DNA from: an uncultured Mailhella sp. | Lineage (GTDB): Bacteria > Desulfobacterota > Desulfovibrionia > Desulfovibrionales > Desulfovibrionaceae | Length of the DNA stretch: 54,859 bases | Direction of reading: 5' to 3' | Assembly: GCF_944324615.1 (NCBI RefSeq) | Contig: NZ_CALUWY010000013.1 | Coordinates: forward strand, 1 to 54,859 | Shown here: positions 7,891-22,190 of the stretch, piece after piece | Layout of the letters: each line of letters begins with the position of its first letter | Position numbering within the stretch: the first letter of the stretch is position 1 | Notes under the pieces: model-generated | Database searches by the model: none | Seen by the model: only the letters and a program-made list of their open reading frames with translations | Told to the model about the DNA's origin: nothing | Made by a program: the position numbers and the translations under genes

Positions 7891-8088
7891 CCATAGCGTC
7901 CGTCACACCGTCCACCACTGTGTGGACAAAAAATGCCCCCGAAGGACGTTTTCCGGCAGAAAACAGGGGGAAAGGAGACAGGCGCGGGGCGTGAGACCGG
8001 GGCAGACGCCCCTTCATCTTGTCATGCCGTGCAAACTGACATACCCTGCCTCCATGACCCGGAGCCGACGCATAGAAAGGAGTTCTCC

Positions 8089-10644
8089 GTGAAAGGCGAC
8101 GCCATTTCTCTTCTTGAATACATGAGTTCCAAAAAACGCTTCGTCATTCCCGTATATCAGAGAAATTACGACTGGAAGAACGAACAGTGCAAACAGCTCT
8201 TCGACGACCTTGTGCGGCTGAAAACATCCGGCCGCAAAAGCCATTTCTTCGGCTGCATCGTTTCTTTCTACGATGCGGAAGCCGACAGTGAGCAGTTCCT
8301 CATCATCGACGGTCAGCAAAGGCTGACGACTGTTTCTCTTCTTCTGCTTGCGCTCCACGACCTTCTCGCGTCCGGCGAGCTTGTGTCGGACTCTCCGCAC
8401 CTCGCCTCCATGATTCAGGAAGAATATCTCATCAACAAGTGGAAATCGAACGACACGCGCATCAAGCTCAAGCCGGTGAAAAACGATCAGAAGGCCTTTC
8501 AGAAACTGTTTGAAAGCCCCGCCGACCACATCAGGGATTCCAATCTCACGGTCAACTACGACTATTTCTGCAAAAGGCTCCGTGAAAAGACGCTTCCCGT
8601 CGATGCCCTGTTCGACGCCCTGAAGCGCCTGGTCATCATTCATATCAGACTGAGCGCTTCCGAAGACGACCCTCAGCTCATTTTTGAAAGCCTGAACTCT
8701 ACGGGCCTCGCCCTGAGCGAAGGCGACAAGATACGCAACTTTATTCTGATGGGGCTGGATTCCCTCACGCAGGAAACATTCTACGAACAATACTGGAACA
8801 ATATCGAAGAATGCACCCGCTATGACGTGAGCGCCTTCGTGCGGGATTTTCTCAGCATCAAGCAGCAGGTCACTCCCGTCATCAGTAAAACCTACCTTGC
8901 GTTCAAAGAATATGTCTACAAGACATGGCCGTCCCCCTCGCGACATGACATTGAGGAGCTGCTCAAAGACCTGCTCACCTATGCCAGGTATTACAGGCTC
9001 CTTCTGACGGGAGGCACCAAAAGCAGAACGCTCAACGACTGCATATTCCGCCTGAACTGGCTGGAAAGCACGGTAAGCCGGCCTTTCCTGCTGGAAATTC
9101 TGCGCCTTCATGAACAGGAAAAGAGCCTCAGCCTTGCGGATATTGAAACAATCTTCCAGATTATCGAAAGTTTTCTTTTCCGGCGCATCATCTGTGAAGT
9201 ACCTGCCAACTCCCTGAACAAAATATTCCTTACGCTGCACAAGGAAATCCTGCGCTTTGACGGAACGGCAGCACAGTATGTCGAAAAGCTGAAATATGTG
9301 CTTTCCGTACGGCGTGAAAGCGGGCGCTTCCCGGATGATGAGGAATTCGGTGCCGCCTTCACCACCAGAAACATTTATCAGATGAAGGCCAAGAACAAGA
9401 CCTATCTCTTTGAACGGCTGGAAAATCACGGCACGCTGGAAACCCGGGACGTATGGCAGCACCTCACGGACGGGGATTACAGCATTGAACACATCATGCC
9501 GCAGACGCTCAGCCCGGAATGGAAAAAACACCTCGGCCCGGACGCGGAACATATCCATGCCGCATGGCTGCACCGCATCGCCAACCTCACCATAGTGGCG
9601 AAAAGCTACAATTCCGCGTACAGCAACCTTTCCTTCACCGACAAGAGGGATGTGAAAAACGGCTTTCGTGATTCCGGCCTGCGCATGAATCAGCTCATCG
9701 CCCAGAAGCATGCGTGGGGCACGGCCGAACTGGAAGAGCGCAGCGAGGCGCTCCTGCAACAGGCGCTTCACATCTGGCCGCGCTGTGAATCGACGTTCCG
9801 GCCGAAAGAAAAACAGCTCGAACTCTGCGACCTTGGCGAAGACCGCAATCTGACCGGGCGGCAGCTTGTGGCTTTCCGCTGGCGGGGCGAAGAACACTGC
9901 ACCTCCCAGTGGTCGGAAATGTATCAGAACATCCTTTCCTGGCTCCATGCGGACGATCCTTCCGTGCTGCTCAGGCTGACGCAGTCGGCAGACAGCGACG
10001 CCCTTCTCGGCAATGCCGTTGCCGCCGCAAAGCCCGATGAACGCAGCTGGGTGGAAATTGCGCCGGACATCTGGCTTCTCACGCACATGAGCACGCAGGC
10101 AAAAATCGTGCGCCTGCGCCGCTTCTTCCAACTTTACGGCGTCGACGAGGGAGAGCTTGTCTTTTCCCTGAAGGAAGAAAGCGAACAGCCCCTGAACGAA
10201 GCCGCACGCTATACTACCCGCCGCCGCTACTGGGAATACGCGCTGGAAATTCTGCGCGAATCCCATACAGACGGCCCCTTCCGCCATGCCGCAGCCTCCC
10301 GACGAAACTATCTGGGCGCCAGCCTGGGCTATGCCGGTATCCAGATTCTCTGCGTGGCCAATCAGGACGAAGCGCGCGTGGAGCTGTACCTCGGCTCCGG
10401 CAAAGAACGCAACAAAAGGATATTCGACCTTCTCCATGCCCATCGTGCGGACATAGAAAAGGAAACCGGTGTGCTGCAATGGAAGCGCAACAGCGAGCTC
10501 AAACACTCAAGCGTGGTGCTCGTCCTCGGCGGCGTCAGCATTTACCACGAAGCCGACTGGGAGCGCATCGCACAGTTTCATGCACACGGGAGCCTCAGCT
10601 TCTGCCGAGCCTTCCTGCCCCTTCTGCATGACATTGCAGGCTGA
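8089..10644 (+). CDS. GmrSD-family (DUF262/DUF1524) type IV restriction protein with C-terminal DUF4268-like domain
   Basis: The 851-residue protein resembles fused GmrS-GmrD enzymes, which restrict phage DNA carrying modified bases. The N-terminal DUF262 (ParB/Srx-like) domain shows FVIPVYQRNYDW near residue 19 and LIIDGQQRLTTVSL, the nucleotide-binding DGQQR motif. A middle helical part leads to a DUF1524 HNH nuclease with YSIEHIMPQTL and RIANLTIVAKSYNS. The last roughly 130 residues (RRNYLGASLG to the end) look like a DUF4268 domain. The start is GTG at 8089, preceded by GAAAGGAG at 8075-8082. An ATG at 7933 would run through the hairpin region. It stands alone between addB (divergent) and cas3. 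Confidence 0.85.
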   Translation: MKGDAISLLEYMSSKKRFVIPVYQRNYDWKNEQCKQLFDDLVRLKTSGRKSHFFGCIVSFYDAEADSEQFLIIDGQQRLTTVSLLLLALHDLLASGELVSDSPHLASMIQEEYLINKWKSNDTRIKLKPVKNDQKAFQKLFESPADHIRDSNLTVNYDYFCKRLREKTLPVDALFDALKRLVIIHIRLSASEDDPQLIFESLNSTGLALSEGDKIRNFILMGLDSLTQETFYEQYWNNIEECTRYDVSAFVRDFLSIKQQVTPVISKTYLAFKEYVYKTWPSPSRHDIEELLKDLLTYARYYRLLLTGGTKSRTLNDCIFRLNWLESTVSRPFLLEILRLHEQEKSLSLADIETIFQIIESFLFRRIICEVPANSLNKIFLTLHKEILRFDGTAAQYVEKLKYVLSVRRESGRFPDDEEFGAAFTTRNIYQMKAKNKTYLFERLENHGTLETRDVWQHLTDGDYSIEHIMPQTLSPEWKKHLGPDAEHIHAAWLHRIANLTIVAKSYNSAYSNLSFTDKRDVKNGFRDSGLRMNQLIAQKHAWGTAELEERSEALLQQALHIWPRCESTFRPKEKQLELCDLGEDRNLTGRQLVAFRWRGEEHCTSQWSEMYQNILSWLHADDPSVLLRLTQSADSDALLGNAVAAAKPDERSWVEIAPDIWLLTHMSTQAKIVRLRRFFQLYGVDEGELVFSLKEESEQPLNEAARYTTRRRYWEYALEILRESHTDGPFRHAAASRRNYLGASLGYAGIQILCVANQDEARVELYLGSGKERNKRIFDLLHAHRADIEKETGVLQWKRNSELKHSSVVLVLGGVSIYHEADWERIAQFHAHGSLSFCRAFLPLLHDIAG

Positions 10645-10809: not shown

Positions 10810-13281
10810 ATGATTCGCCGCAAAAGCACTTCCCCCGCCATGGAACCCCTGCCGCTGGAACAATGTCTGGCCAAAAGCCGCGTCAAGGACGGGGAAACGC
10901 TTCCCGGCCGCACGGTGGAAGAGCACTGCCGCATCACGGGAGCCGTGGCGCAGGCGCTGCTTTCCGCCTTTCCGCTCTGCACGGCAGGGCTTTTTCCCGA
11001 AGGGAGCGATCTGGCCGTGGCCGTGCACGACACAGGCAAGGTCTTTCCCTTCTTTCAGGCCATGATCCACAAGGCGGCGCACGATGCGCAGCGCTTTCCC
11101 CAGCTTGCGCCCTTTCTGGATGCTCCCCGCCCCCTTTCCCACGCCTCCGTAAGCCGGGCCGCGCTCCTGAAGGAATCCTTTGCTCTGGCGGAGGTGGCGG
11201 GCTGGCATCACGGCTTTGCGCCGGAAGCGTGTTCGGCCCTTGACGAGATATGCGGGGGCGAAGGCTGGCAGCAGCTGCGGCTCGAACTCATCCGCCGCCT
11301 GCGCGAAGGCCGCCCCCTGCCGAGCCTGCACACGAAGGAGGAAAAAACGCTGCTCAAGGGGCTTACCGCCGTGGCCGACTGGATAGGCTCAGGCTCCCTT
11401 TTCGACGATCCGGGTCAGCCCTGGCCGCCCCTTGTGCCCCGCGCCGTGGAGGAGGCGGGCTTCTTTCCGCTCCGTTTCGTGCCGGACCTTGCTTTTCAGG
11501 ATATTTTCGGTTTTGCGCCGAACGCCGTGCAGAAGGCTCTGGCGCAGGCCGTCACAGGCCCGGGCGTGTATGTGCTGGAAGCGCCCATGGGCACGGGCAA
11601 AACCGAAGCCGCGCTCTTTGCCGCCTACCGGCTGCTTGCCGCGCAGAAGGCGCGCGGTCTGTACTTCGCCCTGCCCACGCAGCTCACCTCCAACAACATC
11701 TTTGCCCGGCTGCTCCCCTTCCTGCACACCGTGCTTGCCCCGGAAAGCCGCCAGGCCTCCGCACTGCTGCTGCACGGCATGGCCTGGCTCTACGCCACGC
11801 ACAACGAGGAAGGAAAAAACGCCGCTTCGTGGTTTGAACAGAGCCGGCGCGGCCTTCTCGCGCCCTTCGGCGCGGGCACGCTGGATCAGGCGCTCATGTC
11901 CGTCATCAACGTGCGTCATGCGGCGGTGCGCAGTTTCGGCCTTGCAGGCAAGGTGGTCATTCTCGATGAAGTGCATTCCTACGACGCCTACACCGGCACC
12001 CTGCTCGATGCGCTGGTGGAACATCTGCGCGCGCTGGGCTGCACCGTCATTCTGCTGAGCGCCACGCTCACGCGCCTGCGCCGCGCAAGCATCATCGGCA
12101 GAGAAGGCCGGAAGGACGCCTATCCCCTCATCACCGCCCTTCCGGCAGGCGAGTCCCCCTTGCTGGAAACCGGGGCGGGCGCCATGCCCTGCAGCACGGT
12201 GCAGCTTCGCCAAAACGCCGCGGAGGAGGAAGCCCTCAACGAGGCCCTGCTCCGCGCCGGACAGGGCCAGCAGGTGCTGTGGATAGAAAACAGCGTGACC
12301 GAGGCCCAGAGGCTCTTCCGCATCATTGCCGCACGCGCGGCAGGCATGAACGTGGAAACAGGCCTGCTCCACTCCCGCTTCACCCCTGCGGACAGAGAAC
12401 GCAACGAAAGCCGCTGGACGGCCCTTTACGGCAAGAACGCCGGCCATCGCGCGCAATGCGGCCGCATTCTTGTGGGCACGCAGGTACTGGAGCAGTCCCT
12501 CGACATCGACGCCGACTTTCTCATCACCCGCCTCTGCCCCACGGACATGCTCTTCCAGCGCATGGGCCGACTGTGGCGGCATGCAGGCACGCCGCGCCCC
12601 GCAAAAGCCGTGCGCGAAGCATGGGTGCTCGCCCCGGACAAGGAAGAGGCCCTCGCCTGCCCGGCCACGACCTTCGGCATTTCCGGCCTTGTGTACGCAC
12701 CCTATGTGCTTGCCCGCACCCTTGAGGTGTGGAGCGGCAAGACAAGCGTCAGCCTTCCTGCCGACATACGCCCCATGCTGGAAGCCACCTATGCGGAAAG
12801 GGAGGAGACCGCCGCCCTGAACGCCGTGAAGCGCGACCTTCTGCGCAAGGTGGAACAACTGCGCACCCTGGCCCTTGCCAGCCGGAGCGACGGCAGCCAG
12901 AGAAGCGGACAGACCCGCCTTGTGGAAGAGGAAACCTGCCCCGTGCTTCTGGTACGCAGCCTTTCCCGGGAAGGCTGCACCCTGGCCGACGGCAGGGTCA
13001 TCCGCTTCGACGCCGCCCCGCGCAGGGAAATTTCCGCCGCGCTCTTTTCCAGCATCGTGCGCATCCGCAAAAAAAGCAGCGCCTTCACGCAGTCCGTCAA
13101 CACCTCGGAGGAAAAACGCCGCCTTTTTCAGCCCTATCTGCCGGTGAAGGAAAACTACGAGCCCCTCTTCCTTGCCCGCATACGCCCCGACGACGTTCTG
13201 GAAGACCTCTGCGCCGCAGGCCATACCTGCGGCCGCTACACCTCGCGCACAGGCTGGGAAAAGGAAGACTTGCCAGAATAA
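10810..13281 (+). CDS. cas3: Type I-E CRISPR-associated helicase-nuclease Cas3
   Basis: The 823-residue Cas3 is recruited by DNA-bound Cascade to nick and degrade target DNA. The HD nuclease is N-terminal: H39, the HD pair of AVHDTGK (73-74), GWHHGF (133-134) and ADWIGSGS. The helicase has Walker A MGTGKT near 260, DEVH near 386, LLSATLT and the late motif GTQVLEQSLDID followed by QRMGRLWRH. The length is normal for the family. The ATG at 10810 follows CCCGGGAAAAACGCC, a weak ribosome binding site. It heads the cas locus but is followed by a 484-bp gap with its own terminator and promoters, so cas3 is probably transcribed apart from the Cascade operon. Confidence 0.97.
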   Translation: MIRRKSTSPAMEPLPLEQCLAKSRVKDGETLPGRTVEEHCRITGAVAQALLSAFPLCTAGLFPEGSDLAVAVHDTGKVFPFFQAMIHKAAHDAQRFPQLAPFLDAPRPLSHASVSRAALLKESFALAEVAGWHHGFAPEACSALDEICGGEGWQQLRLELIRRLREGRPLPSLHTKEEKTLLKGLTAVADWIGSGSLFDDPGQPWPPLVPRAVEEAGFFPLRFVPDLAFQDIFGFAPNAVQKALAQAVTGPGVYVLEAPMGTGKTEAALFAAYRLLAAQKARGLYFALPTQLTSNNIFARLLPFLHTVLAPESRQASALLLHGMAWLYATHNEEGKNAASWFEQSRRGLLAPFGAGTLDQALMSVINVRHAAVRSFGLAGKVVILDEVHSYDAYTGTLLDALVEHLRALGCTVILLSATLTRLRRASIIGREGRKDAYPLITALPAGESPLLETGAGAMPCSTVQLRQNAAEEEALNEALLRAGQGQQVLWIENSVTEAQRLFRIIAARAAGMNVETGLLHSRFTPADRERNESRWTALYGKNAGHRAQCGRILVGTQVLEQSLDIDADFLITRLCPTDMLFQRMGRLWRHAGTPRPAKAVREAWVLAPDKEEALACPATTFGISGLVYAPYVLARTLEVWSGKTSVSLPADIRPMLEATYAEREETAALNAVKRDLLRKVEQLRTLALASRSDGSQRSGQTRLVEEETCPVLLVRSLSREGCTLADGRVIRFDAAPRREISAALFSSIVRIRKKSSAFTQSVNTSEEKRRLFQPYLPVKENYEPLFLARIRPDDVLEDLCAAGHTCGRYTSRTGWEKEDLPE

Positions 13282-13298
13282 ACAATGTCAGATAAAAG
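13270..13298 (+). promoter_or_regulatory. Candidate promoter for the crRNA-like RNA
   Basis: TTGCCA (13270-13275), a 17-bp spacer and TAAAAG (13293-13298) overlap the end of cas3. Start of transcription near 13305 would give an RNA that enters the degenerate repeat at 13347. The match is modest. Read-through from cas3 is the alternative. Confidence 0.3.
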
Positions 13299-13346
13299 AA
13301 CAGGATACATTCCGCAGCCTGCCCGCCTTCCTCTTCGGAACGGGAT

Positions 13347-13443
13347 GTCTCCACCCAGGTGGAGGTGTTTCCATGAATTAGGTCATGCGGAAGGACTTCC
13401 CCTCATCCGGGGGGGCAAAAGGGAAGATTTCTTCCCTTTTTTT
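13347..13443 (+). ncRNA. CreR-like crRNA-resembling RNA (degenerate repeat, pseudo-spacer, degenerate repeat, terminator)
   Basis: Pseudo-repeat 1 (13347-13371) starts GTCT, forms a CTCCACC/GGTGGAG stem and ends GTGTTTC. This is the same 3' handle as the 28-bp array repeats, with a different but still paired stem. The next base is C, as in the array. The pseudo-spacer (13373-13393) begins ATGAATTAGGT. Pseudo-repeat 2 (13394-13421) aligns with the first 22 bases of the array repeat at about 17 positions and lacks the handle. An intrinsic terminator follows at 13417-13443. The 11-base start of the pseudo-spacer recurs with an AAC in front at 13466 and 13712, beside TTGACTTAA elements upstream of cas8e. 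A Cascade loaded with this RNA is inferred to bind there and repress the operon, as known cas-regulating RNAs do. Processing by Cas6e is untested. Confidence 0.75.
13417..13443 (+). terminator. Intrinsic terminator of the crRNA-like RNA and cas3
   Basis: Perfect 11-bp stem AAAAGGGAAGA/TCTTCCCTTTT with a TT loop, ending in a run of seven T. It separates cas3 and the crRNA-like unit from the Cascade operon. Confidence 0.8.
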
Positions 13444-13508
13444 CTGCACCGCTTGACTTAACAACATGAATTAGGTGTCTCCGATTCATCCTCCTTCTTC
13501 CAGAGGAG
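13421..13508 (+). repeat. Direct repeat copy A of the cas8e promoter region
   Basis: Shares in order with copy B (13678-13765): the palindrome GGGAAGATTTCTTCC, CTTGACTTAA, ACATGAATTAGGT, ATTCATCC and CTTCTTCCAG then GAGGAG. It lacks a good -10 box 17 bp after TTGACT (13453-13458) and leads into no open frame, so it looks like a decayed duplicate of the cas8e control region. Confidence 0.7.
13463..13476 (+). promoter_or_regulatory. Protospacer-like site 1 for the crRNA-like RNA (PAM AAC)
   Basis: AAC at 13463-13465 is followed by ATGAATTAGGT (13466-13476), identical over 11 bases to the start of the pseudo-spacer at 13373. Complementarity ends there, which would allow Cascade binding without a full R-loop. 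Confidence 0.65.
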
Positions 13509-13677
13509 CACCAGAACCCCATGCCGGACCGGCCGGGGATACCTGCTTTTCCCCAAAACCGGGAAAAACGCCTTCATGCGCCTGCCGGAAAGGCATGTTT
13601 CAAGGGCGGGAGGGCTTCTTTCCGCCTGCACAGGGGGCCTGCCGGGAACAACACGGCAAAGGAACGTTCCACAACGA
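13509..13677. other. Non-coding remnant between promoter copies
   Basis: No gene is supported. It contains CCGGGAAAAACGCC (near 13556-13569), the string that precedes the cas3 start, so it may be debris from duplication of cas 5' regions. Confidence 0.4.
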
Positions 13678-13700
13678 GGGAAGATTTCTTCCTCCGCTAC

Positions 13701-13731
13701 TTGACTTAAACATGAAATAGGTAAATATAAA
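13701..13731 (+). promoter_or_regulatory. Promoter of the Cascade operon
   Basis: The -35 box TTGACT (13701-13706) is followed by an AT-rich -10 region; TAAATA (13722-13727) and TATAAA (13726-13731) are alternatives with 15- and 19-bp spacing. The same TTGACT hexamer serves the CRISPR leader at 18226. The predicted start lies about 30 bp before the cas8e GTG. Confidence 0.55.
13709..13722 (+). promoter_or_regulatory. Protospacer-like site 2 inside the cas8e promoter (PAM AAC)
   Basis: AAC (13709-13711) then ATGAAATAGGT (13712-13722) matches the pseudo-spacer start at 10 of 11 positions. The single mismatch is position 6, which is flipped out and unpaired in type I-E Cascade. The site lies between the -35 and -10 elements, so binding would block RNA polymerase. 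Confidence 0.65.
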
Positions 13732-13765
13732 TTTCAACCATCCATCCTTTTTCCAGGGAGGAACC

Positions 13766-15784
13766 GTGACGAAAAACCGCTTCAATCTTACTGCCGAACC
13801 GTGGATTCCCATTGCCGACCATGGCCGGGTATCCCTCCGGCAGGTCTTTTCCGAAGCTCTGCCCCCCTCGCCGGGGGGGCCTCCGCTCATCAGGATAAGT
13901 GTGTTCAAACCGCTTCTGGCCATTGCGCAGGCCGCGGCCACGCCCAAAAACGACGAGGAGTGGCTTGCCCTCGGCCCGCAGGGGCTGGCGGAACGCTGTC
14001 TGGTCTATCTGGACAGGCATGCCGACGAGTTCTGGCTCTACGGCGACCGGCCTTTTCTCCAGTTCCCGGCCTGTGCCAGGGCCGAACTCAAAAGCTACGG
14101 CACGGCCATGCCGGAAGTGGCCTCCGGCAACACGACGTGGCTTTCCCATCAGCAGCTTGAACCGGAGCTGGATGATGCGGAGAGGGCGCTGCTTCTTCTG
14201 GAGCAGATGTCCCTCTGCCTCGGCGGCAAGAAGCCGTACAACAAGCTCGTGCTCAGCCCGGGCTATGAGAAAAAGGTCAGCGGCAAACCCGGCCCGGCTC
14301 TCTGCCACATGGGCCTGCTCCACTCCTTCCTTCTGGGGAGCAGCCTTGTGGAAAGCCTGTGGCTCAACCTGCTCACGCAGGAAGACATTGCCGGGCAGAA
14401 ACAGTGGGAAGCAGGACTCGGCACTCCCCCGTGGGAAACCATGCCTCAGGGGGAGAACTGCCCCGCGGCGCGGGCGCTCAAGTCGAGCCTCATGGGCAGG
14501 CTTGTGCCCCTGGCGCGCTTCTGCCTGCTGGATGAGGGCGGCCTGCGCTTTACCGAAGGCATCGTGCACCCCGACTATCAGTCCGGCATGGTCGATCCTT
14601 CCGCCGCCATGGACGCTTCCCGGGCCAAACCCCGCATGTTGTGGACGGATCCGGAAAAACGGCCCTGGCGTCAGCTTCCGGCGCTGCTCTCCTTCCTCGA
14701 CGCGCAGCAGAGCAATTCCGGCTTTTACTGCCTCGGCCTTCAGAAGGGGCTGGACAGGGTGAAGAAGTACCGGGACCTGTGCCCTGTGGACACCATCGGG
14801 ATATGGAGCGGCGGGGTAAGGGTAAGCAGCAATGCGGGCGAACAGTACCTCACCGGCAAGGACGACGAGCTGGAATCGGAAGTCTGGTTTGAAAGCTCCC
14901 AGCTGGGCGAAATCTGGTTTTCCGCCTTCCGCGACCTCATGGAGGATGTGGAAAAGCGCGCCCAGATTCTGTACCGCGCGGTGAACAGCTACTGCAAGGC
15001 CATGAAGATGGACGAAAAAAGCGCGGCGGCTGCCGCAGCGGAAAGCGCCGGTCTTTTCTGGCAGATGGTGGAACCCCTGCTGCAGGACATCATTGACGGC
15101 TGCGAAGACAGCGCCTCCCGCACCGCGATTCTCGGCCGCTGCCACGGCCTGACGCTCATGCTTTACGACGAGGCCTGCCCCCACGGGACGGGGCGGCAGG
15201 CCGAGGAATGGATCATACACCGCCCCCTTTCCCGGGAGGAATATCGTATGGAACAACCAGGAAACGACCATGCCCGGCTTCTGGCGTGGGTTATGGAAAG
15301 GCTCGGCCCTTCGCCCAGCATCAGAGACACGGGCGCCATTGCCCGGCTGAAGCGGGCCGACGGCAGTGAACGCTTTGCCGTGCAGGCCTGGGAGCTGCTG
15401 ATCCGCTTCAACATTGCCGATGAGGACTTCACGCCCTGCCTCACCGTGCTTGCGCCCCTGTGCCGCAGGGATGATCCCGTCGACGGCAGGGCCTCTCTCG
15501 GCCAGGCTCTGGCCTCCTGCTTCGACGACAGGAAGGAGGGAAGTCTGCGCCTGCGCCGCCTTCTGAACTGCGACGGCACGGACGAGCTGTGCCTTCAGCT
15601 GCGGCCGCTGCTCTCCTTCATGGATGCCAAGGCCAAGAAAAAGCTCTCCTATGCCCGGCTTCTGGGCGACATTCTGGCCTTCCGCCATGCCGGACGGCGG
15701 CAGAACGTGAAAATGCGCTGGGCAAAGGAATACTGGAGCATGGAAAAGGAGGAAGCCCCCGCTCCCGACGGAGAAGCCGCATGA
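13766..15784 (+). CDS. cas8e: Cas8e-Cas11e (Cse1-Cse2) fusion, Cascade large and small subunit
   Basis: One 672-residue frame holds both subunits. Residues 1-494 are Cas8e (usual length about 500), which recognises the PAM and recruits Cas3; it opens RFNLTAEPWIPI and includes the conserved FLQFPACARAEL region. Residues 495-672 are Cas11e, which lines the R-loop, with RLRRLLNCDG, LRPLLSFMDAKAKKKLSY and WAKEYW. The start is GTG at 13766 after GGGAGG. At the junction there is a perfect second ribosome binding site, GGGAGGA (15234-15240), 7 nt before an in-frame ATG at 15248 (MEQPGNDH). Free Cas11e is therefore likely to be made as well, which would suit the usual 1:2 Cas8e:Cas11e ratio. The stop overlaps cas6e. 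Confidence 0.93.
   Translation: MTKNRFNLTAEPWIPIADHGRVSLRQVFSEALPPSPGGPPLIRISVFKPLLAIAQAAATPKNDEEWLALGPQGLAERCLVYLDRHADEFWLYGDRPFLQFPACARAELKSYGTAMPEVASGNTTWLSHQQLEPELDDAERALLLLEQMSLCLGGKKPYNKLVLSPGYEKKVSGKPGPALCHMGLLHSFLLGSSLVESLWLNLLTQEDIAGQKQWEAGLGTPPWETMPQGENCPAARALKSSLMGRLVPLARFCLLDEGGLRFTEGIVHPDYQSGMVDPSAAMDASRAKPRMLWTDPEKRPWRQLPALLSFLDAQQSNSGFYCLGLQKGLDRVKKYRDLCPVDTIGIWSGGVRVSSNAGEQYLTGKDDELESEVWFESSQLGEIWFSAFRDLMEDVEKRAQILYRAVNSYCKAMKMDEKSAAAAAAESAGLFWQMVEPLLQDIIDGCEDSASRTAILGRCHGLTLMLYDEACPHGTGRQAEEWIIHRPLSREEYRMEQPGNDHARLLAWVMERLGPSPSIRDTGAIARLKRADGSERFAVQAWELLIRFNIADEDFTPCLTVLAPLCRRDDPVDGRASLGQALASCFDDRKEGSLRLRRLLNCDGTDELCLQLRPLLSFMDAKAKKKLSYARLLGDILAFRHAGRRQNVKMRWAKEYWSMEKEEAPAPDGEAA
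15248..15784 (+). CDS. cas11e: Cas11e (Cse2) from internal translation start
   Basis: This 178-residue product is predicted from the in-frame ATG inside cas8e-cas11e. GGGAGGA lies 7 nt upstream. The length fits stand-alone Cse2 (about 160-180). Basic helical segments such as KRADGSERF, RLRRLL and KAKKKLSYARLL match the nucleic-acid-binding small subunit. Internal starts for Cas11 are known inside other type I large-subunit genes (I-B, I-C, I-D). In I-E, Cas11e is normally a separate gene. Whether the fused form, the free form or both enter Cascade cannot be told from sequence. Confidence 0.65.
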   Translation: MEQPGNDHARLLAWVMERLGPSPSIRDTGAIARLKRADGSERFAVQAWELLIRFNIADEDFTPCLTVLAPLCRRDDPVDGRASLGQALASCFDDRKEGSLRLRRLLNCDGTDELCLQLRPLLSFMDAKAKKKLSYARLLGDILAFRHAGRRQNVKMRWAKEYWSMEKEEAPAPDGEAA

Positions 15785-16380
15785 TGTACGTTCACCACTA
15801 TCTTCTCACCCTGCGCGACTGCCGCGCCCTGCGCCTTACGGACGGGTATTCCCTGCACCGGGCGGTATACGGGCTTTTCCCGGACGTGCGCGCGGGAGCG
15901 CCCGGCCCCAGCGGCATTCTTTTTGCCGACAAGGGCGGAAGCGACGGCCTGCGCCGCATTCTCATTCTTTCCGACAGGCAGGCCCTTGCGCCGGAACACG
16001 GCCGCCTGGAAAGCCGGGAACTTCCCGCTGAGTTTCTGAACTACCCCCGTTACCGCTTTGAACTTGTGGTGAACGCCGTGCGCAAGCAGAACGGCCGGCG
16101 CGAACCCGTGCGCGGCCGCGAAGCCGTGGAGGCATGGTTTCTGGAAAAGGCTCCTTCCTGGGGCTTTGACCCCCATGCCCCGTCGGTGCAGGTGGCGGAC
16201 ATTGCGGTGGACGTTTTTTCCAAGGCCGACGGCAAGAAGGTCACCCTCTCCAGGGCCCGCGTCACCGGCGCCCTCACCGTGGCGGACAAGGAACGTTTCA
16301 CCCACAGCTTCACCTGCGGCATAGGCCACGGCAAGGCCTTCGGCTGCGGACTGCTCCAGCTTTCCCCCCTTATTTTCTAA
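15781..16380 (+). CDS. cas6e: Cas6e (Cse3) crRNA-processing endoribonuclease
   Basis: The 199-residue protein cuts the repeat hairpin of the precursor crRNA and stays on the crRNA 3' end in Cascade. It has the N-terminal ferredoxin-like start and YSLHRAVYGLFP, whose His matches the family's catalytic histidine, and ends with the glycine-rich loop GIGHGKAFGCGLLQLSPL. The start ATG (15781) overlaps the previous stop as ATGA. A second ATG follows directly. It lies before cas7e and cas5e, unlike the E. coli order, where cas6e comes last. It should cut the array repeats and possibly the degenerate repeat at 13347. Confidence 0.95.
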   Translation: MMYVHHYLLTLRDCRALRLTDGYSLHRAVYGLFPDVRAGAPGPSGILFADKGGSDGLRRILILSDRQALAPEHGRLESRELPAEFLNYPRYRFELVVNAVRKQNGRREPVRGREAVEAWFLEKAPSWGFDPHAPSVQVADIAVDVFSKADGKKVTLSRARVTGALTVADKERFTHSFTCGIGHGKAFGCGLLQLSPLIF

Positions 16381-16400: not shown

Positions 16401-17468
16401 ATGAACGATCTCAAAGGCTGCCGCATCGAATTCCATATTCTCCAGTCCTTCCCCGTCACCTGCCTGAACCGCGACGATGTCGGCGCGCCCAAAAGCGCCG
16501 TGGTGGGCGGCGTGCCCCGCGCCCGCGTCAGTTCCCAGTGCTGGAAGAGGCAGGTGCGCCTCCAGCTTCAGCAGCTGGGCGTGAAAACCGCCCTGCGCAC
16601 CAAGCAGGTGGCCGAAGTGCTCAAACGCGCCTGTGTGGAGGCCGGAGCCGCTGAGGAGCAGGCGAACACCTTTTCCGAAGCCTTTGCCAATACCCTTGTG
16701 GATGACACGCTGCTCTTCTTTTCCGAAAGTGAAGCCCGCGCCGTGGCCGAAGCCGCGCTTTCCGGCAACTTCTCCGTGGAGGCGGCCATAAAAAAGAACA
16801 CCCTCACCGCAGAATTCAAAAAAATCCATAAAAAATACTTCCATCCTGCCGAAGACGGGCTGGACATCGCGCTTTTCGGCCGCATGGTGGCGCAGGCGCC
16901 CGAGCTCAACGTGGCCGCGGCGGCAAGCTTTGCCCATGCCATTTCCACGCACCGGGCGGACAGCGAAGTGGAATTCTTCACCGCCCTTGACGACGACCCC
17001 ATGGGCATCATCAGCCAGGGTTCGGCCCACATGGGCAGTCTGGAATTCAATTCCGCCACCTATTACCGGTATGTGAGCCTCGATCTCGGTCAGCTTGCCT
17101 GCACGCTGGAAGGCTGCGGCCTCGCCCGCGCGGTGTCCGCCTTCGTGAAGGCGCTGTATCTGGCCGTTCCCTCGGCCCGGCAGACCACGCAGACCGGCCT
17201 GCACCTCTGGGATTACGCCCGGGTGCTCATCCGCAGGGGGCAGGGCATGCAGGTGAGCTTCGATACTCCGGTGCGTTCCCAGAACGGCTACCTTGCGCCC
17301 AGCATCGCGGCGCTGGATGCGGCCATAGCCCGCCAGGAAAAGCAGGCGGGTTCGCTCTACGGCAAAGAGGCCGGGTTCACCTTCGGCAGGGCCGATGCCG
17401 AAATCTCCATCGACGAACTGGCCGAAGGCCTCGCCGCCTTCGTGCGGCCCTTTGAGGAAAAGGCATGA
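16401..17468 (+). CDS. cas7e: Cas7e (Cse4) Cascade backbone subunit
   Basis: The 355-residue RAMP protein forms the six-copy filament that holds the crRNA spacer. The N-terminus HILQSFPVTCLNRDDVGAPK and the block GGVPRARVSSQCWKRQVR are family hallmarks, as is HRADSEVEFFTALDD in the middle. The length is normal. AAGGA precedes the ATG, 20 bp after the cas6e stop. The end overlaps cas5e by 4 bp. Confidence 0.96.
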   Translation: MNDLKGCRIEFHILQSFPVTCLNRDDVGAPKSAVVGGVPRARVSSQCWKRQVRLQLQQLGVKTALRTKQVAEVLKRACVEAGAAEEQANTFSEAFANTLVDDTLLFFSESEARAVAEAALSGNFSVEAAIKKNTLTAEFKKIHKKYFHPAEDGLDIALFGRMVAQAPELNVAAAASFAHAISTHRADSEVEFFTALDDDPMGIISQGSAHMGSLEFNSATYYRYVSLDLGQLACTLEGCGLARAVSAFVKALYLAVPSARQTTQTGLHLWDYARVLIRRGQGMQVSFDTPVRSQNGYLAPSIAALDAAIARQEKQAGSLYGKEAGFTFGRADAEISIDELAEGLAAFVRPFEEKA

Positions 17469-18175
17469 GAACCCTGCTTCTCTGGCTGGAAGCTCCCCTG
17501 CAGTCCTGGGGAGCCGGTTCCCGCTACGGCAGGCGCGACACGCTCCCCTTCCCCACCCGCTCCGGCATACTCGGCCTGCTGTGCTGCGCCATGGGAAGGG
17601 GAGGAGAACAGCGCGACTGGCTCGCCACCATGAAACACCTGCCGCAGACCGTCATGGCCTTCGCCCCCGCCGACCGGCAGGGCAGGCCCGCAAGGCAGCC
17701 GCTTCTGCAGGATTTCCACATGGTGGGCAGCGGGTACGATGCCGCCGACCCGTGGCAGGACATGCTCATTCCCAAAAAGGCGGACGGCAGGCGCCCCGTG
17801 GGTTCGGGCACCAAGCTCACCTACCGCTATTACCTTCAGGACATGGCCTATGCCTGCGCCCTTGCCGTGCCGGATGACATGGAAGAGGAAATCGCCTCCG
17901 CCCTCGTGGCGCCGGTGTGGCCCATCTGCCTCGGCCGGAAAAGCTGCGTGCCTTCCGACAGGGTGTACCGCGGCTTCTTCGACCATGAGGATGAGGCACT
18001 GGCCCATGCCGGCATCCTTGCCGGAGAAAAAAGGCGCGTTCCCGTCTTCAAGGTGCTTTCCGGCCTGCATGAGGAAGGCAACGCCCTCTGCGTGAACGAT
18101 GTGCCCGTCGCCTTCGGCCTGTACAAGCGCTACGAAGACAGAACCGTCACCGTCATCGACCTGCCCGTGGCGTAA
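17465..18175 (+). CDS. cas5e: Cas5e Cascade subunit
   Basis: The 236-residue Cas5 binds the 5' handle of the crRNA and caps the Cas7 filament. MRTLLLWLEAPLQSWG at the N-terminus and TLPFPTRSGILGLLCCAMGR are typical. The handle it must bind is GTGTTTC plus one pyrimidine in this locus. The start overlaps cas7e as ATGA. It is the last gene of the Cascade operon, 85 bp before the CRISPR array. Confidence 0.95.
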   Translation: MRTLLLWLEAPLQSWGAGSRYGRRDTLPFPTRSGILGLLCCAMGRGGEQRDWLATMKHLPQTVMAFAPADRQGRPARQPLLQDFHMVGSGYDAADPWQDMLIPKKADGRRPVGSGTKLTYRYYLQDMAYACALAVPDDMEEEIASALVAPVWPICLGRKSCVPSDRVYRGFFDHEDEALAHAGILAGEKRRVPVFKVLSGLHEEGNALCVNDVPVAFGLYKRYEDRTVTVIDLPVA

Positions 18176-18260: not shown

Positions 18261-20180
18261 GTCTTCCCCACATGCGTGGGGGTGTTTCTCCTCAGCGGCG
18301 GCACCACCGGGCTTACTTTCTGTCTTCCCCACATGCGTGGGGGTGTTTCCGTGCACGCCGACCCCTCCGTGAAGAGTACACCGTCTTCCCCACATGCGTG
18401 GGGGTGTTTCCATTGTGGACGCCTGCGGGTATCTGGGGCTGTAGTCTTCCCCACATGCGTGGGGGTGTTTCCAAGAGCCTGATTCATACGAACCTCCTTG
18501 CCGGGTCTTCCCCACATGCGTGGGGGTGTTTCTAGCAGCCACTTCTTCGGCCGTGGTAGCCATAGGTCTTCCCCACATGCGTGGGGGTGTTTCTCCGTGT
18601 GGAGTCTGGCTTCGCGTCTGATGTCCGTCTTCCCCACATGCGTGGGGGTGTTTCTAGACATGGCTTCATCGCTTCCCTGAAAAGCACGTCTTCCCCACAT
18701 GCGTGGGGGTGTTTCTATGCTTGCCTCGTGGGGCTATAGTCCTGAAGAGTCTTCCCCACATGCGTGGGGGTGTTTCCACGCTACCCCTTTGAGGCGGACA
18801 GCCCCAGGGGTCTTCCCCACATGCGTGGGGGTGTTTCTTCGTGATGGAAGATTACAGCTGCACCGAAACCGTCTTCCCCACATGCGTGGGGGTGTTTCTA
18901 TGCGGGCGATTCTGGGATTTTTCCTTGTATTGTCTTCCCCACATGCGTGGGGGTGTTTCTGTTTACCGCTTCGTCCCCGCCCGCGATTCCGGGTCTTCCC
19001 CACATGCGTGGGGGTGTTTCCACGTTTTTGCCACCCCCGCCCTTGCCGGGAGCGTCTTCCCCACATGCGTGGGGGTGTTTCCTACAAGTTTTACCAGCCT
19101 GGCCAGGTGTCCGGGTCTTCCCCACATGCGTGGGGGTGTTTCCCGCCCTGGAAACCATGACCAAAACGGCGCGCCGTCTTCCCCACATGCGTGGGGGTGT
19201 TTCTCCGCGACGTGTGCCGTGAGTGCGGAAACCGCGGTCTTCCCCACATGCGTGGGGGTGTTTCTACACGCGCCCACGGCCGCAAGGGCAATCCGGGGTC
19301 TTCCCCACATGCGTGGGGGTGTTTCCGGTAGGAACAGCTTCGGGCAGCTTGTAGGCCGGTCTTCCCCACATGCGTGGGGGTGTTTCTGTGATCTATACCT
19401 GTCACAAAATGGCGGAAGCGTCTTCCCCACATGCGTGGGGGTGTTTCCGAAAGCGAGTTGCGCGTTGACTTCAAAAACGGGTCTTCCCCACATGCGTGGG
19501 GGTGTTTCTACACAGATCCTCTTGGACTTGCTGCGCATGGCGTCTTCCCCACATGCGTGGGGGTGTTTCCATATCGGACCCAATGGCGAAAATGGCGTTC
19601 TCGTCTTCCCCACATGCGTGGGGGTGTTTCTCTATGTCGTTACTTTGGGCGATGAGCTGAGAGGTCTTTCCCACATGCGTGGGGGTGTTTCCGGGCGTTC
19701 CGCCGCCGTCATCGCTTATGAGCTGTCTTCCCCACATGCGTGGGGGTGTTTCCTTTATGTAACTTTGCTTTTCTTGTCTTTATGTGTCTTCCCCACATGC
19801 GTGGGGGTGTTTCTGGATAAAGCCTACAAAGGGATGAAAGCTACGAGTCTTCCCCACATGCGTGGGGGTGTTTCCAGACCATACGGCGGACATTCATGCT
19901 CGACCAGGTCTTCCCCACATGCGTGGGGGTGTTTCTGTCAGGACAATGTAGCGCAGGCGGGGAGGAGGGTCTTCCCCACATGCGTGGGGGTGTTTCTGAC
20001 ATACGCAGGGGCATGGCCCCGGAGGCGCTGTCTTCCCCACATGCGTGGGGGGGAGACTAAAGATTGATAGAAAATGATTCAACAATATTAGTCTTCCCCA
20101 CATGCGTGGGGGGGAGACTCTTGGTAAGATGAATAGTACGGCCGATTCGAGTCTTCCCCACATGCGTGGGGGGGGAGACT
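18261..20180 (+). CRISPR. CRISPR array 2, type I-E, 32 repeats
   Basis: Repeats of 28 bp start every 61 bp from 18261 to 20030, then at 20091 and 20151. The repeat starts GTCTTCCCCACATGC, forms a CCCCAC/GTGGGG hairpin and ends GTGTTTC. One internal copy (19664) has a single C-to-T change. The last three (20030, 20091, 20151) have replaced the handle by GAGACT with extra G. After each of the 29 canonical repeats the next base is C (13) or T (16), so functionally the repeat is 29 bp with 32-bp spacers. Orientation is set by the promoter at 18226, the degenerate distal end and the E. coli-like repeat polarity. It sits between cas5e and cas1. Confidence 0.98.
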
Positions 20181-20240
20181 CGTTCCCGCCGGAAGAGCAT
20201 CAACGCATCTTTGGCAAACAATCCGTCCCAAGGAGGTCGC

Positions 20241-21131
20241 ATGCCCCCATGTTCCGACGCACAAGCCTCCCGAAGGCTGTTCATTCCCATCAAACGCGAA
20301 ACACTTCCCCGCGTTTCCGACAAATATCCCTTTCTCTATCTGGAACGCGGCAGGCTGGAAATCGACGACAGCAGCCTGAAGTGGATCGACGCCGACGGCG
20401 ACCGTGTACGTCTGCCCGTTGCCACCATCAACGCCCTTCTGCTCGGGCCCGGCACCAGCGTCACCCACGAGGCCGTGAAGACGGCGGCCGCCGCCAACTG
20501 CTCCCTGTGCTGGGTGGGAGAGGATTCCCTTCTTTTCTATGCTGCGGGCTGCTCTCCCACGGCGAACACCCGCAACCTGCTCAGGCAGGCGCGCCTTGCC
20601 GCACACCCCGAACATTCCCTGTCTGTGGCGCGCGCCTTTTTTGCCCGGCGCTTTCCCGATGCCGACCTGAACAAGAAAACCCTTCAGGAAATGATGGGCA
20701 TGGAAGGCCTGCGCGTGCGCAAGCTCTATGAAGAAAAAGCCCGGCAGTACAACGTGGGCTGGAAGGGGCGCTCCTTCACCCCGGGAAGGTTTGAACTGAG
20801 CGATCTTACCAATCAGATACTCACCTCGGCCAATGCCGCCCTCTACGGCGTGCTCTGTTCCTGCGTGCATGCGCTGGGCTATTCGCCGCATCTGGGCTTC
20901 ATCCATTCCGGGAGCCCTCTGCCCTTCATCTACGACCTTGCGGACCTGTACAAGGAAGAGCTTTGTGTGGATCTGGCCTTTTCCCTCACCCTGCATCTTG
21001 CGGGCGTATACAACAAATATACCGTTTCGGAAGCCTTCCGAAAGCGTGTTCTGAACATGAAGCTTCTGGAACGCATCCCGGAAGATATCGACTGCCTGAT
21101 AGGAGAAAGACATGCTCGTCGTTATCGCTAA
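20241..21131 (+). CDS. cas1: Cas1e spacer-integration nuclease
   Basis: The 296-residue Cas1 is the catalytic integrase of spacer acquisition. The start is ATG 20241, 5 bp after AAGGAGG (20229-20235). A longer frame from 20166 would start in the last CRISPR repeat. Metal-binding residues are visible as the E of MMGMEGLRVRKLYEE, the H of LGFIHSGSPLPF and the D of FIYDLADLYKEEL. It follows the array directly and overlaps cas2 by 20 bp. With cas2 it forms a separate adaptation unit from the Cascade operon. Confidence 0.96.
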   Translation: MPPCSDAQASRRLFIPIKRETLPRVSDKYPFLYLERGRLEIDDSSLKWIDADGDRVRLPVATINALLLGPGTSVTHEAVKTAAAANCSLCWVGEDSLLFYAAGCSPTANTRNLLRQARLAAHPEHSLSVARAFFARRFPDADLNKKTLQEMMGMEGLRVRKLYEEKARQYNVGWKGRSFTPGRFELSDLTNQILTSANAALYGVLCSCVHALGYSPHLGFIHSGSPLPFIYDLADLYKEELCVDLAFSLTLHLAGVYNKYTVSEAFRKRVLNMKLLERIPEDIDCLIGERHARRYR

Positions 21132-21423
21132 CGATCTGCCGCCCGCCGTGCGCGGCCGCATGAAACTCTGGTTTGTGGAGGCAAGGGCAAACGTTTTTGT
21201 TTCCGGCATCAGGGATGCTGTGGCAACAAGCGTCATCGACTATCTTTTTGCACACTGCCCTGCACGGAGCGGACTGCTGATCTTTCAGAAAATTTCTTCC
21301 GCTCCCGGGTACAGAATACACGGTATGGGAGACACACGCCGCCGCCTGAAGGAAATTTCAGGGCTTCAGCTTGCTCTGGAAAACGATGAACTCCCCTTTG
21401 CCCCCTCCCGGAATCTTTCATAA
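21112..21423 (+). CDS. cas2: Cas2e, adaptation complex subunit
   Basis: The 103-residue type I-E Cas2 (the CT1978-like branch) bridges two Cas1 dimers. MLVVIANDLPPAVRGRMKLW and the strand SGLLIFQKIS fit the family. The start lies inside the end of cas1. The promoter of a second mini-array (21398-21426) overlaps its last codons. Confidence 0.95.
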   Translation: MLVVIANDLPPAVRGRMKLWFVEARANVFVSGIRDAVATSVIDYLFAHCPARSGLLIFQKISSAPGYRIHGMGDTRRRLKEISGLQLALENDELPFAPSRNLS

Positions 21424-21431: not shown

Positions 21432-21520
21432 CATGTCCCCACATGCGTGGGGGTGTTTCCGGATGAGAATAACAGCAAGGACATGGGCGGCCCATGTCCC
21501 CACATGCGTGGGGGTGTTTC
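21432..21520 (+). CRISPR. One-spacer type I-E mini-array downstream of cas2
   Basis: Two repeats (21432-21459, 21493-21520) match the main array from base 5 to the end but start CATG in place of GTCT. They are 61 bp apart and each is followed by a pyrimidine (C, T). The one spacer is 21461-21492. A third repeat at 21554 keeps the 61-bp step but has lost its handle and has become the palindrome CCCCCCACGCGTGGGGGG. Confidence 0.85.
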
Positions 21521-21553
21521 TCCCGACATAGTCTTTTCCAAGAGCGGGGAGAA

Positions 21554-22190
21554 GTCTTCCCCCCACGCGTGGGGGGCTCTGCCCGTCTCCTCGATACTTT
21601 GGCGCTGCCCGTCTCCCCCGCACGCATATTTTTTCTGCGGCACGCTTTTCTCGCGAATATATCGAAAATCTTCCCCATTGGCGCGGGGTAATTCCGTAAG
21701 TCGTACAGGAGCAAAGGTACTCCTCATCCCCCACGCGCGGGGGCTGCGATACGGTTCCTCCATGGAGGTTCTGTTTCCCCGCACGCGCCGTGCTCCGGCA
21801 TGGCTGCCGTGCTGCTTTTCTTCATTTTTTTACAACAAGGGAGATAACAATATGGACATGCTGATCGTCATCGTGACCGTTGCCGTTACCTTGCTCATTT
21901 CTTTCATGGAACATGTTCTTTTCTGATGTTCCCCCGCGTCGGGGTTTCCCGAGTGGCGGAGGCTGTCCCCTGCTCCGTGCCGACATTCCCTGCACGCGCG
22001 GGGCATCGCCGCGAGCGGCGTGCTGCAGCGTCAGGCCTCTTCCCTGCACATGCGGAAGCCTGCATGCACACGTCCGCGGGGGTGAACTCATGCCGAGATA
22101 CAGGTGCAGGGCACTATCGAACCCTTTCCCACGCCCGCGGGGTGAGCCTGCGGCCTGCCCCTTGAATCCATAACGGCACGCCCGCGGCCC
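21554..22190 (+). repeat. Decaying CRISPR tail
   Basis: After the mini-array, repeat-like blocks continue near 21554, 21611, 21668 and 21723 at steps of 55-61 bp, with weaker ones near 21772, 21926, 21983 and 22124. Several keep a CCCC...GGGG hairpin around an ACGCG core (for example CCCCCACGCGCGGGGG near 21728) while the outer bases drift. The first four are convincing. The later ones are weak and may be chance in GC-rich DNA. Confidence 0.55.
21852..21926 (+). CDS. Small membrane peptide, 24 aa
   Basis: An ATG at 21852 follows AAGGGAG with 8 nt between, a good ribosome binding site. The product starts MDMLIVIVTVAVTLLISF and ends MEHVLF; residues 3-18 form one hydrophobic helix. The size and shape resemble small membrane toxins or regulatory micropeptides. 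It lies among decaying CRISPR repeats 425 bp after cas2. The start region is similar to the spacer of the mini-array (see findings). No homology is claimed. Confidence 0.5.
   Translation: MDMLIVIVTVAVTLLISFMEHVLF

What the first reader, a model, noticed from the sequence alone, without database searches (positions are those of the whole stretch)
13347..13722. Type I-E cas-regulating crRNA-like RNA (CreR-like) aimed at its own cas8e promoter
Between cas3 and cas8e is a lone degenerate repeat with a re-paired stem (CTCCACC/GGTGGAG) and an intact GTGTTTC handle, followed by ATGAATTAGGT, a second degenerate repeat and a strong terminator. The 11-base start of this pseudo-spacer recurs twice downstream, each time after AAC: perfectly at 13466 and with one mismatch at 13712. 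The mismatch is at position 6, the base that is flipped out in type I-E guide-target pairing. Site 13712 lies between the -35 and -10 elements of the likely Cascade promoter. AAC agrees with the AAY PAM inferred separately from the array. Matching stops after 11 bases, enough for binding but probably not for Cas3 attack. Cas-regulating RNAs of this logic are known in some CRISPR systems; this instance, with a compensated repeat, its own terminator and two targets, appears new.
Basis: partly seen in the sequence, partly recalled or inferred. Interest (0 to 1): 0.93.

Follow-up and report, generated by a model that had tools for sequence, protein, structure and literature searches.

The report
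CRISPR guide RNA aimed at itself
Between two CRISPR genes of a bacterium of the genus Mailhella lies a short stray CRISPR unit whose guide matches the control region of its own defence genes, and in three related species guide and target have changed together, so it likely makes a small RNA that would lead the defence complex back to turn its own genes down; RNAs of this kind are already known.

Summary
Window 13344-13443 holds a two-repeat mini-CRISPR between cas3 and cas8e of a complete type I-E locus (genus Mailhella). The first 11 guide bases recur after AAC at 13466 (11/11) and 13712 (10/11, mismatch at position 6); these are the only exact AAC+seed sites in the 3.12-Mb genome. Seed positions 1-5, 7 and 8 match 7/7 in 5 of 5 own pairs and in 0 of 15 cross pairs. 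A gammaproteobacterium (Methylomicrobium sp. RS1) has a further instance. Best reading: a cas-regulating RNA (CreR) that leads Cascade to repress the cas8e operon. CreR autorepression of type I-E is already in print, so this is a new member of a known kind. Corrections: the two targets are copies of one duplicated control region, not independent; only 13712 is close to cas8e; the promoter's -10 is unclear. New details: a 21-nt spacer (array 32) and a conserved helix between the RNA's leader and the guide's 3' part (4 of 4 species, two compensatory pairs; moderate evidence). Transcription, processing and repression are untested.

The parts
13270..13298 (+). predicted promoter of the regulatory RNA: TTGCCA, 17 nt, TAAAAG
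   Evidence: By eye; TTGCC(A/G/C/G)-17-TAAA(AG/CA/AT/CA) at the same place in all 4 Mailhella genomes. The strict scan lists it only in L025 (not).
13310..13316 (+). 5' arm of helix P1 (TTCCGCA) in the RNA's leader, pairs with the guide's 3' part
   Evidence: Complementary 6-8 bp in 4 of 4 species, two pairs changed on both sides, present in 4 of 4 minimum-energy folds.
13344..13372 (+). degenerate repeat 1 with re-paired stem CTCCAC/GTGGAG and intact handle GTGTTTC(C)
   Evidence: same element in L014, L015, L016 and L045.
13373..13393 (+). 21-nt pseudo-spacer (guide); seed 13373-13383 ATGAATTAGGT
   Evidence: array spacers are 32 nt between the 29 intact repeats.
13386..13392 (+). 3' arm of helix P1 (TGCGGAA) inside the guide
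13394..13414 (+). degenerate repeat 2, hairpin kept, handle lost
   Evidence: 17 of 21 bases like the array repeat, handle 1 of 7; hairpin in fold.
13417..13443 (+). terminator-like hairpin AAAGGGAAGATTTCTTCCCTTT with T-run
   Evidence: Sequence and fold; not listed by the strict scanner in the window.
13463..13476 (+). target site 1: PAM AAC (13463-13465) + seed, 11 of 11
   Evidence: Upstream copy of the duplicated control region.
13709..13722 (+). target site 2: PAM AAC (13709-13711) + seed, 10 of 11 (mismatch at position 6), 54 nt before the cas8e start
13701..13731 (+). presumed cas8e-operon promoter: TTGACT 13701-13706, TATAAA 13726-13731 (19 nt apart)
   Evidence: By eye; no strict sigma-70 match. 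Inferred because creR ends in a terminator and cas8e follows.
13420..13518 (+). upstream copy of the duplicated control region (around site 1)
   Evidence: Local alignment with 13677-13766 scores 88.5, best of 200 shuffles 44; right part 0 of 2000 shuffles.
13677..13766 (+). downstream copy of the duplicated control region (around site 2), reaching the cas8e ribosome-binding site
13766..15784 (+). cas8e fused in frame to cas11: first gene of the operon thought to be repressed
   Evidence: TIGR02547 at residues 7-481 and TIGR02548 at 520-658; PF09481 and PF09485.
18261..20058 (+). CRISPR array (29 intact repeats from 18261 to 19996, then altered ones)

Best explanation
The mini-CRISPR at 13344-13443 is likely a cas-regulating RNA (CreR) of the type I-E system: its guide, whose first 11 bases match AAC-flanked sites upstream of cas8e, is predicted to lead Cascade there and hold down transcription of the Cascade operon. 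Proposed steps. (1) A short RNA starts near 13305 and ends at the hairpin and T-run (inferred). (2) Cas6e cuts after the two hairpins, leaving an 8-nt handle, a 21-nt guide and a 3' hairpin (inferred from the kept stem, handle and second hairpin). (3) Cascade carries it to AAC plus seed at 13712, within the presumed promoter, and to 13466 (match shown, binding inferred). (4) Pairing ends after about 11-13 bases and the guide is only 21 nt, so Cas3 would not be triggered; bound Cascade would block RNA polymerase (inferred). (5) Repression would be strongest when Cascade is in excess and ease when crRNAs or anti-CRISPR proteins take Cascade away (by analogy with published CreRs).
For: Guide-target co-variation in 4 species: seed positions 1-5, 7, 8 match 7/7 in 5 of 5 own pairs and 4-6 of 7 in 15 of 15 cross pairs. 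PAM AAC in 6 of 6 pairs including L045. 0 of 3000 shuffles per species. Only two exact sites in the genome, both here. 9 of 11 mismatches in positions 1-13 at the flipped positions 6 or 12, and pairing resumes at 13 in 5 of 6 pairs. The AAC+seed unit stays whole while its distance from TT(G/T)ACT varies. Repeat 1 keeps stem and handle, repeat 2 only its hairpin, the pattern of CreTA repeats. Terminator-like hairpin with changed sequence in relatives. Complete I-E genes. Independent case in L045. Literature: CreA represses through an 11-bp seed and 21-24-nt spacers repressed without priming in a type I-B system (PMC10989794 passages; those spacers matched their target fully); CreR autorepression reported for I-E (PMC13131331 passage).
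Against: No expression data. In E. coli type I-E, partial matches bound Cascade but were transcriptionally inert, and a cited study found repression greatly reduced by 6 mismatches at the far end (PMC5904413 passages). The strict scan finds no cas8e promoter, and -10 candidates lie at different distances in the relatives. Only 4 of 288 family genomes carry the element. G004's seed has an extra mismatch at position 9. The PAM is inferred, not shown.
Confidence: 0.85

Rival explanations
1. A CreTA- or CrePA-like addiction module: site 1 (13466) is the promoter of a toxin RNA or small toxic protein in 13477-13680 that Cascade with this RNA keeps silent; site 2 is a by-product.
For: Site 1 matches the guide perfectly and is followed by a ribosome-binding-like stretch and ORFs of 62 and 81 aa. 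The stretch has no counterpart in the relatives, as would fit a fast-changing toxin.
Against: No Pfam family for either ORF. Site 1 has no -10 at normal spacing. Its surroundings are a copy of the cas8e control region. In 3 of 3 Mailhella relatives the only site lies 137-140 nt before cas8e.
Confidence: 0.06
2. A decayed remnant of a CRISPR array whose resemblance to the promoter is left over from a duplication and has no function.
For: Both repeats are degenerate; the region has a real duplication.
Against: Guide and target co-vary in four species, the stem is re-paired and the handle is unchanged. A remnant would drift independently.
Confidence: 0.03
3. The shared 11-mer is a binding site for a protein regulator, present once in the RNA gene and again at the cas8e promoter.
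For: TAGGT (positions 7-11) is kept in 4 of 4 Mailhella guides and in 4 of 5 of their targets.
Against: A protein site would be the same across species, but positions 2-4 differ between species and match only within each genome. The shared stretch begins at the handle on one side and after AAC on the other. L045 has an unrelated seed with the same layout.
Confidence: 0.03

Closest known systems
CreR, cas-regulating RNA (Liu et al. 2023, Cell Host Microbe; not held, known here from passages of the reviews PMC13131331, PMC12737573, PMC12948488)
   Same: Mini-CRISPR inside a cas locus; crRNA-like RNA; short complementarity to a cas promoter; type I-E is one of the reported types.
   Different: Here: a guide of 21 nt in 3 of 4 Mailhella species, a duplicated target region in the window's species, and a leader-guide helix. 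I could not check whether published CreRs share these features, since the primary paper is not held.
crRNA-like elements / regulatory mini-arrays (Shmakov et al. 2023, NAR; not held; content recalled, title seen in the reference list of PMC10651486)
   Same: Recalled: two repeat-like sequences around a spacer partly complementary to cas gene promoters, cas8 in particular.
   Different: Could not compare case lists.
CreA of CreTA toxin-antitoxin RNA pairs (type I-B haloarchaea; PMC9458426, PMC10989794)
   Same: First repeat more diverged with handle kept, second with handle lost; 11-bp seed match at a promoter.
   Different: No toxin found here; the gene after the target is cas8e; type I-E with hairpin repeats.
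Racr, RNA anti-CRISPRs of phages (PMC10651486)
   Same: Stand-alone repeat made into a crRNA-like RNA.
   Different: Those are encoded by phages and inhibit the Cas proteins; this lies inside the cas locus and has a guide with a target.

Membership tests
Type I-E CRISPR-Cas (host system) | cas3, cas8e, cas11, cas7, cas5e, cas6e, cas1e, cas2e | tested here: met
   NCBIfam and Pfam; cas8e and cas11 are one gene.
CreR | mini-CRISPR of degenerate repeats beside cas genes | tested here: met
   conserved in 4 Mailhella species.
CreR | guide with limited complementarity to the cas control region, next to a PAM | tested here: met
   11/11 and 10/11 after AAC; co-variation in 4 species. That the site is the promoter is inferred (negative).
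CreR | not coupled to a toxin | tested here: inconclusive
   No Pfam family in the ORFs behind site 1; relatives have a single site before cas8e. A novel toxin in the window's 13477-13680 is not excluded.
CreR | RNA is made, processed by Cas6 and bound by Cascade | not testable with these tools
   Only sequence signs: stem, handle, second hairpin, terminator-like hairpin.
CreR | Cascade with the RNA represses cas transcription; relief by crRNAs or anti-CRISPR proteins | not testable with these tools
   Needs reporter assays.
CreTA / CrePA | a toxin RNA or toxin gene behind the repressed promoter | tested here: not met
   In relatives the site precedes cas8e; in the window no known toxin family behind site 1.
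Racr (phage RNA anti-CRISPR) | solitary repeat unit encoded in a viral genome | tested here: not met
   Lies between cas3 and cas8e in 4 species; no viral contig with handle+seed pattern.

The most novel reading that the evidence does not exclude
The Mailhella RNA is a self-locked CreR. Its own 5' leader pairs with the guide's 3' half (TTCCGCA/TGCGGAA here, CTTCGCA/TGCGAAG in relatives), holding the guide shut until Cas6e and Cascade open it, so that it loads last, only when Cascade exceeds the supply of ordinary crRNAs, and becomes a true sensor of spare Cascade. It then acts on two tandem operators and, with a 21-nt guide, builds a shortened Cascade that can block but not recruit Cas3.
Probability: 0.2. 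Interest if true: 0.75.

Novelty: new member of a known kind. Interest (0 to 1): 0.5.

Why it matters
Four species offer a natural compensatory-mutation experiment for CRISPR self-regulation: seed changes in the guide are mirrored at the site before cas8e, and most mismatches sit on the bases that type I-E pairing flips out. That makes repression of cas genes by a short match directly testable in a lineage for which one search of the held papers gave no publication (0 papers). It also bears on an open tension, since short matches were reported as transcriptionally inert in E. coli (PMC5904413 passages). The leader-guide helix, if real, offers a testable idea of how such an RNA could give way to immune crRNAs.

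Tried and rejected
Rejected: decayed array, because guide and target co-vary. Protein-binding site, because the sites differ between species but match within each. Phage mimic: 0 viral contigs with handle+seed. Toxin module behind site 1: no Pfam family, no counterpart in relatives. Two independent targets: they are a duplication. Whether the 158 nt between the copies (13519-13676) are a decayed piece of cas8e stayed undecided: score 23 against own cas8e, reached by 5 of 300 shuffles, but the cas3 end scores 22, also 5 of 300.

Led nowhere: PAM check through protospacers (array against phages; 3 of the array's spacers in viral contigs: no match); Rfam (one match far below its gathering score); structure of the cas8e leader (z -1.4 in the window; -0.6, -1.1 and -3.4 in L024, L025, L026); named-genome search with a single protein (none; repeated with an alignment, which kept 80 of 131 relatives).

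Scans of other loci. One search scanned 94 upstream regions: the window, L014-L016, 75 loci and 15 loci. Left out were L024-L026 (same contigs as L014-L016) and L049 and L076 (too little upstream DNA); a few of the 94 are one genome twice (L006/L027, L007/L079). Hits in 9 of 94: 4 Mailhella, L045, and four (L072, L087, L091, L096) that I judged chance because no repeat handle precedes them; L015 has one further chance-like hit. For minus-strand loci among the 15, read the wrong side. re-scanned all 15 by coding strand (reverse strand on ties, which complements) and gave 1 chance-like hit (L113) and no repeat handle with a target. One search has the same fault for G006 and G202, so those two rows are void. 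(stand-alone stem+handle with the locus's own repeat; 54 array detections) recovered 3 of the 4 Mailhella species but missed G004 and L045; its 20 other look-alikes had no target.

Full report
THE LOCUS. The window carries a complete type I-E CRISPR-Cas locus: cas3 (10810-13281), a fused cas8e-cas11 gene (13766-15784), cas6e (15781-16380), cas7 (16401-17468), cas5e (17465-18175), an array (from 18261), cas1e (20166-21131) and cas2e (21112-21423), by NCBIfam and Pfam.

THE ELEMENT. Between cas3 and cas8e lie a degenerate repeat (13344-13372), a 21-nt spacer (13373-13393), a second degenerate repeat without handle (13394-13414) and a terminator-like hairpin with T-run (13417-13443). Repeat 1 is 12 of 21 like the array repeat but keeps the handle 7 of 7 and re-pairs its stem; repeat 2 is 17 of 21 and keeps 1 of 7 handle bases. 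This is the pattern described for CreTA repeats: the first repeat keeps the Cas5-binding nucleotides, the second has largely lost them (PMC9458426, abstract and section 13 seen). Spacers between the 29 intact array repeats are 32 nt.

THE MATCH. The first 11 guide bases recur at 13466 (11/11) and 13712 (10/11, mismatch at 6), each after AAC. Of bases 12-21, 3 of 10 match at either site. In the 3.12-Mb genome held (126 contigs) the exact AAC+ATGAAWTAGGT occurs only at these two places; two further places match with 1 mismatch. In the window AAYATGAANTA also occurs only there; shuffles hold 0.06 on average and 1 of 100 reaches two. In each of four species, 0 of 3000 dinucleotide shuffles of the gap reach the observed match. 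Using every 11-mer of each gap as a pretend guide gives, besides the real guide, 4 hits in the window (all from the duplicated block), 2 in G014 (C/T runs) and none in G010 and G004.

RELATIVES AND CO-VARIATION. Of 19 genus genomes, 7 have a cas8e match, and 3 besides the window have the close type. These 3 of 3 carry the element in the same gap. Guide / target: window ATGAATTAGGT / ATGAATTAGGT and ATGAAATAGGT; G010 ATAGATTAGGT / ATAGAATAGGT; G014 ATGGATTAGGT / ATGGATTAGGT; G004 AGTAAGTAGGT / AGTAATTAAGT. All targets follow AAC. Seed positions 1-5, 7 and 8 match 7/7 in 5 of 5 own pairs and 4-6 of 7 in 15 of 15 cross pairs. The distance between TT(G/T)ACT and AAC differs between species while the AAC+seed unit stays whole. 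The spacer is 21 nt in three species and about 31 nt in G004, where about 10 nt are inserted right after the seed. A covariance model of the element scores 105-131 bits in these 4 genomes and under 38 bits at every other place listed among 288 family genomes; of those weak matches one lies in the window's own array, and the rest were not examined one by one. Distant cas8e relatives in the family show no such element by eye or scan.

OUTSIDE THE GENUS. A scan of 94 cas8e upstream regions (limits told under Tried and rejected) found one more convincing case, L045 (Methylomicrobium sp. RS1). It has repeat 1 with the same weak stem CTCCAC/GTGGAG and handle GTGTTTCC, guide GATAGACTTGG, and target AAC GATAGACTTGG just after the presumed cas3 stop. 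There the target lies upstream of the RNA, so the RNA sits between that site and cas8e and might control its own making as well. Over six pairs (the five Mailhella ones and L045), 9 of 11 mismatches within positions 1-13 fall at 6 or 12, the flipped-out positions, and position 13 matches in 5 of 6. Ending the match at 11 partly selects for a mismatch at 12, so the weight lies on position 6 and on the resumption at 13.

WHY TWO SITES. The blocks around the two sites are copies of each other. Left: AGGGAAGATTTCTTCC ... TTGACTTAA. Right: CATCC-TCCTT-TTCCAG-GGAG-GAACC, which 0 of 2000 shuffles reach. The whole alignment scores 88.5 against a maximum of 44 in 200 shuffles. The three relatives have one site, 137-140 nt before cas8e; in the window the sites lie 300 and 54 nt before it. 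So the window's species most likely duplicated its cas8e control region. Site 1 keeps the -35-like bases, PAM and a perfect seed but lost the AT-rich stretch. It may be a second operator, a roadblock behind the terminator, or a remnant; one genome cannot decide.

PROMOTERS. By eye the RNA has its own promoter (TTGCCA-17-TAAAAG, 13270-13298), present at the same place in 4 of 4 genomes; the strict scan lists it in L025 only. For cas8e the strict scan lists candidates over the site in L024 and L026 and none in the window and L025. That the site is the operon's promoter rests on position: it follows a terminator-like hairpin and precedes cas8e.

A HELIX BETWEEN LEADER AND GUIDE. In 4 of 4 species the guide's 3' part, which does not match the target, is complementary to the leader: TTCCGCA/TGCGGAA here, CTTCGCA/TGCGAAG in G010, CTTCGC/GCGAAG in G014, GCTTCGCA/TGCGAAGC in G004. 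Two pairs change on both sides; 27 of 28 cells pair, against 36-56% in slid versions; but 32 of 500 shuffles reach the same co-variation, so with four sequences this is moderate evidence. Per species the helix alone is weak: 213, 263, 527 and 29 of 5000 shuffles reach it. The 4 minimum-energy folds contain it (z -2.1 to -2.6), though the centroid of G004 does not. In G004 the motif survives the insertion in the guide. It might fold the precursor, shield the guide or delay loading; the last is my most novel reading.

HOW IT LIKELY WORKS. An independent short transcript would be cut by Cas6e and taken up by Cascade, which returns to the AAC+seed site in front of cas8e and blocks it. For it: PMC10989794 (passages) says that CreA matches 11 bp at its promoter, and that spacers of 21-24 nt (fully matching their target) cut expression of a gene to about 9-13% of control in H. 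hispanica, or 10-29% in a strain without array, with no priming. PMC5904413 (passages) says that 5 bp suffice for type I-E Cascade binding in E. coli, more than 18 bp are needed for interference, and position 6 matters less. Against it: the same paper saw no transcription effect at such partial sites and argues that they are too unstable; and PMC6828817 (passages) lists a paper by title in which shortened spacers still interfered in E. coli. The published CreR model (competition by crRNAs, relief by anti-CRISPRs) is known to me here only from reviews (PMC13131331, PMC12737573, PMC12948488; passages); the primary papers are not held or were not found.

NOVELTY. Type I-E CreR is in print (PMC13131331 passage). 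A search for Mailhella with CRISPR terms gave 0 papers. I file this as a new member of a known kind. The duplicated target region, the short spacer and the leader-guide helix could make it a variant, but I could not compare them with the published cases.

Noticed in passing
window 13766-15784 (SD 15234-15239, in-frame start 15248): cas8e and cas11 are fused in frame in the window and 3 Mailhella relatives, and all four keep GGGAGG plus an in-frame ATG/ATG/GTG/GTG at the start of the Cas11 part. This suggests that free Cas11 may also be made from an internal start, as recalled for Cas11 inside cas8 of other type I systems. One paper search for such a fusion found nothing relevant.
   Followed up: partly
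window 20030, 20091, 20151: The last three array repeats share an altered handle (GGGAGAC-like instead of GTGTTTC), so their crRNAs may be non-functional.
   Followed up: no
window 21432-21695: A short decayed second array behind cas2e: two good repeats (21432, 21493) and two worse ones (21554, 21668).
   Followed up: no
L045:3671-3930: Methylomicrobium sp. RS1 carries a creR-like element of another layout: the target site comes first, the RNA follows between it and cas8e, with a 32-nt guide and an intact second repeat.
   Followed up: partly
window 7933-10644: The gene before cas3 (903 aa) matches PADLOC 'Orf5' models (best E 1e-164) and restriction-type defence models, so a second defence gene adjoins the CRISPR locus.
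   Followed up: partly
L026:532-667: The cas8e leader of G004 forms a strong long hairpin (z -3.4); G010 and G014 have weaker ones (z -0.6, -1.1).
   Followed up: no
window 13519-13676: 158 nt of unknown origin between the two copies of the control region; a weak likeness to the own cas8e start (5 of 300 shuffles) hints at a tandem duplication.
   Followed up: partly
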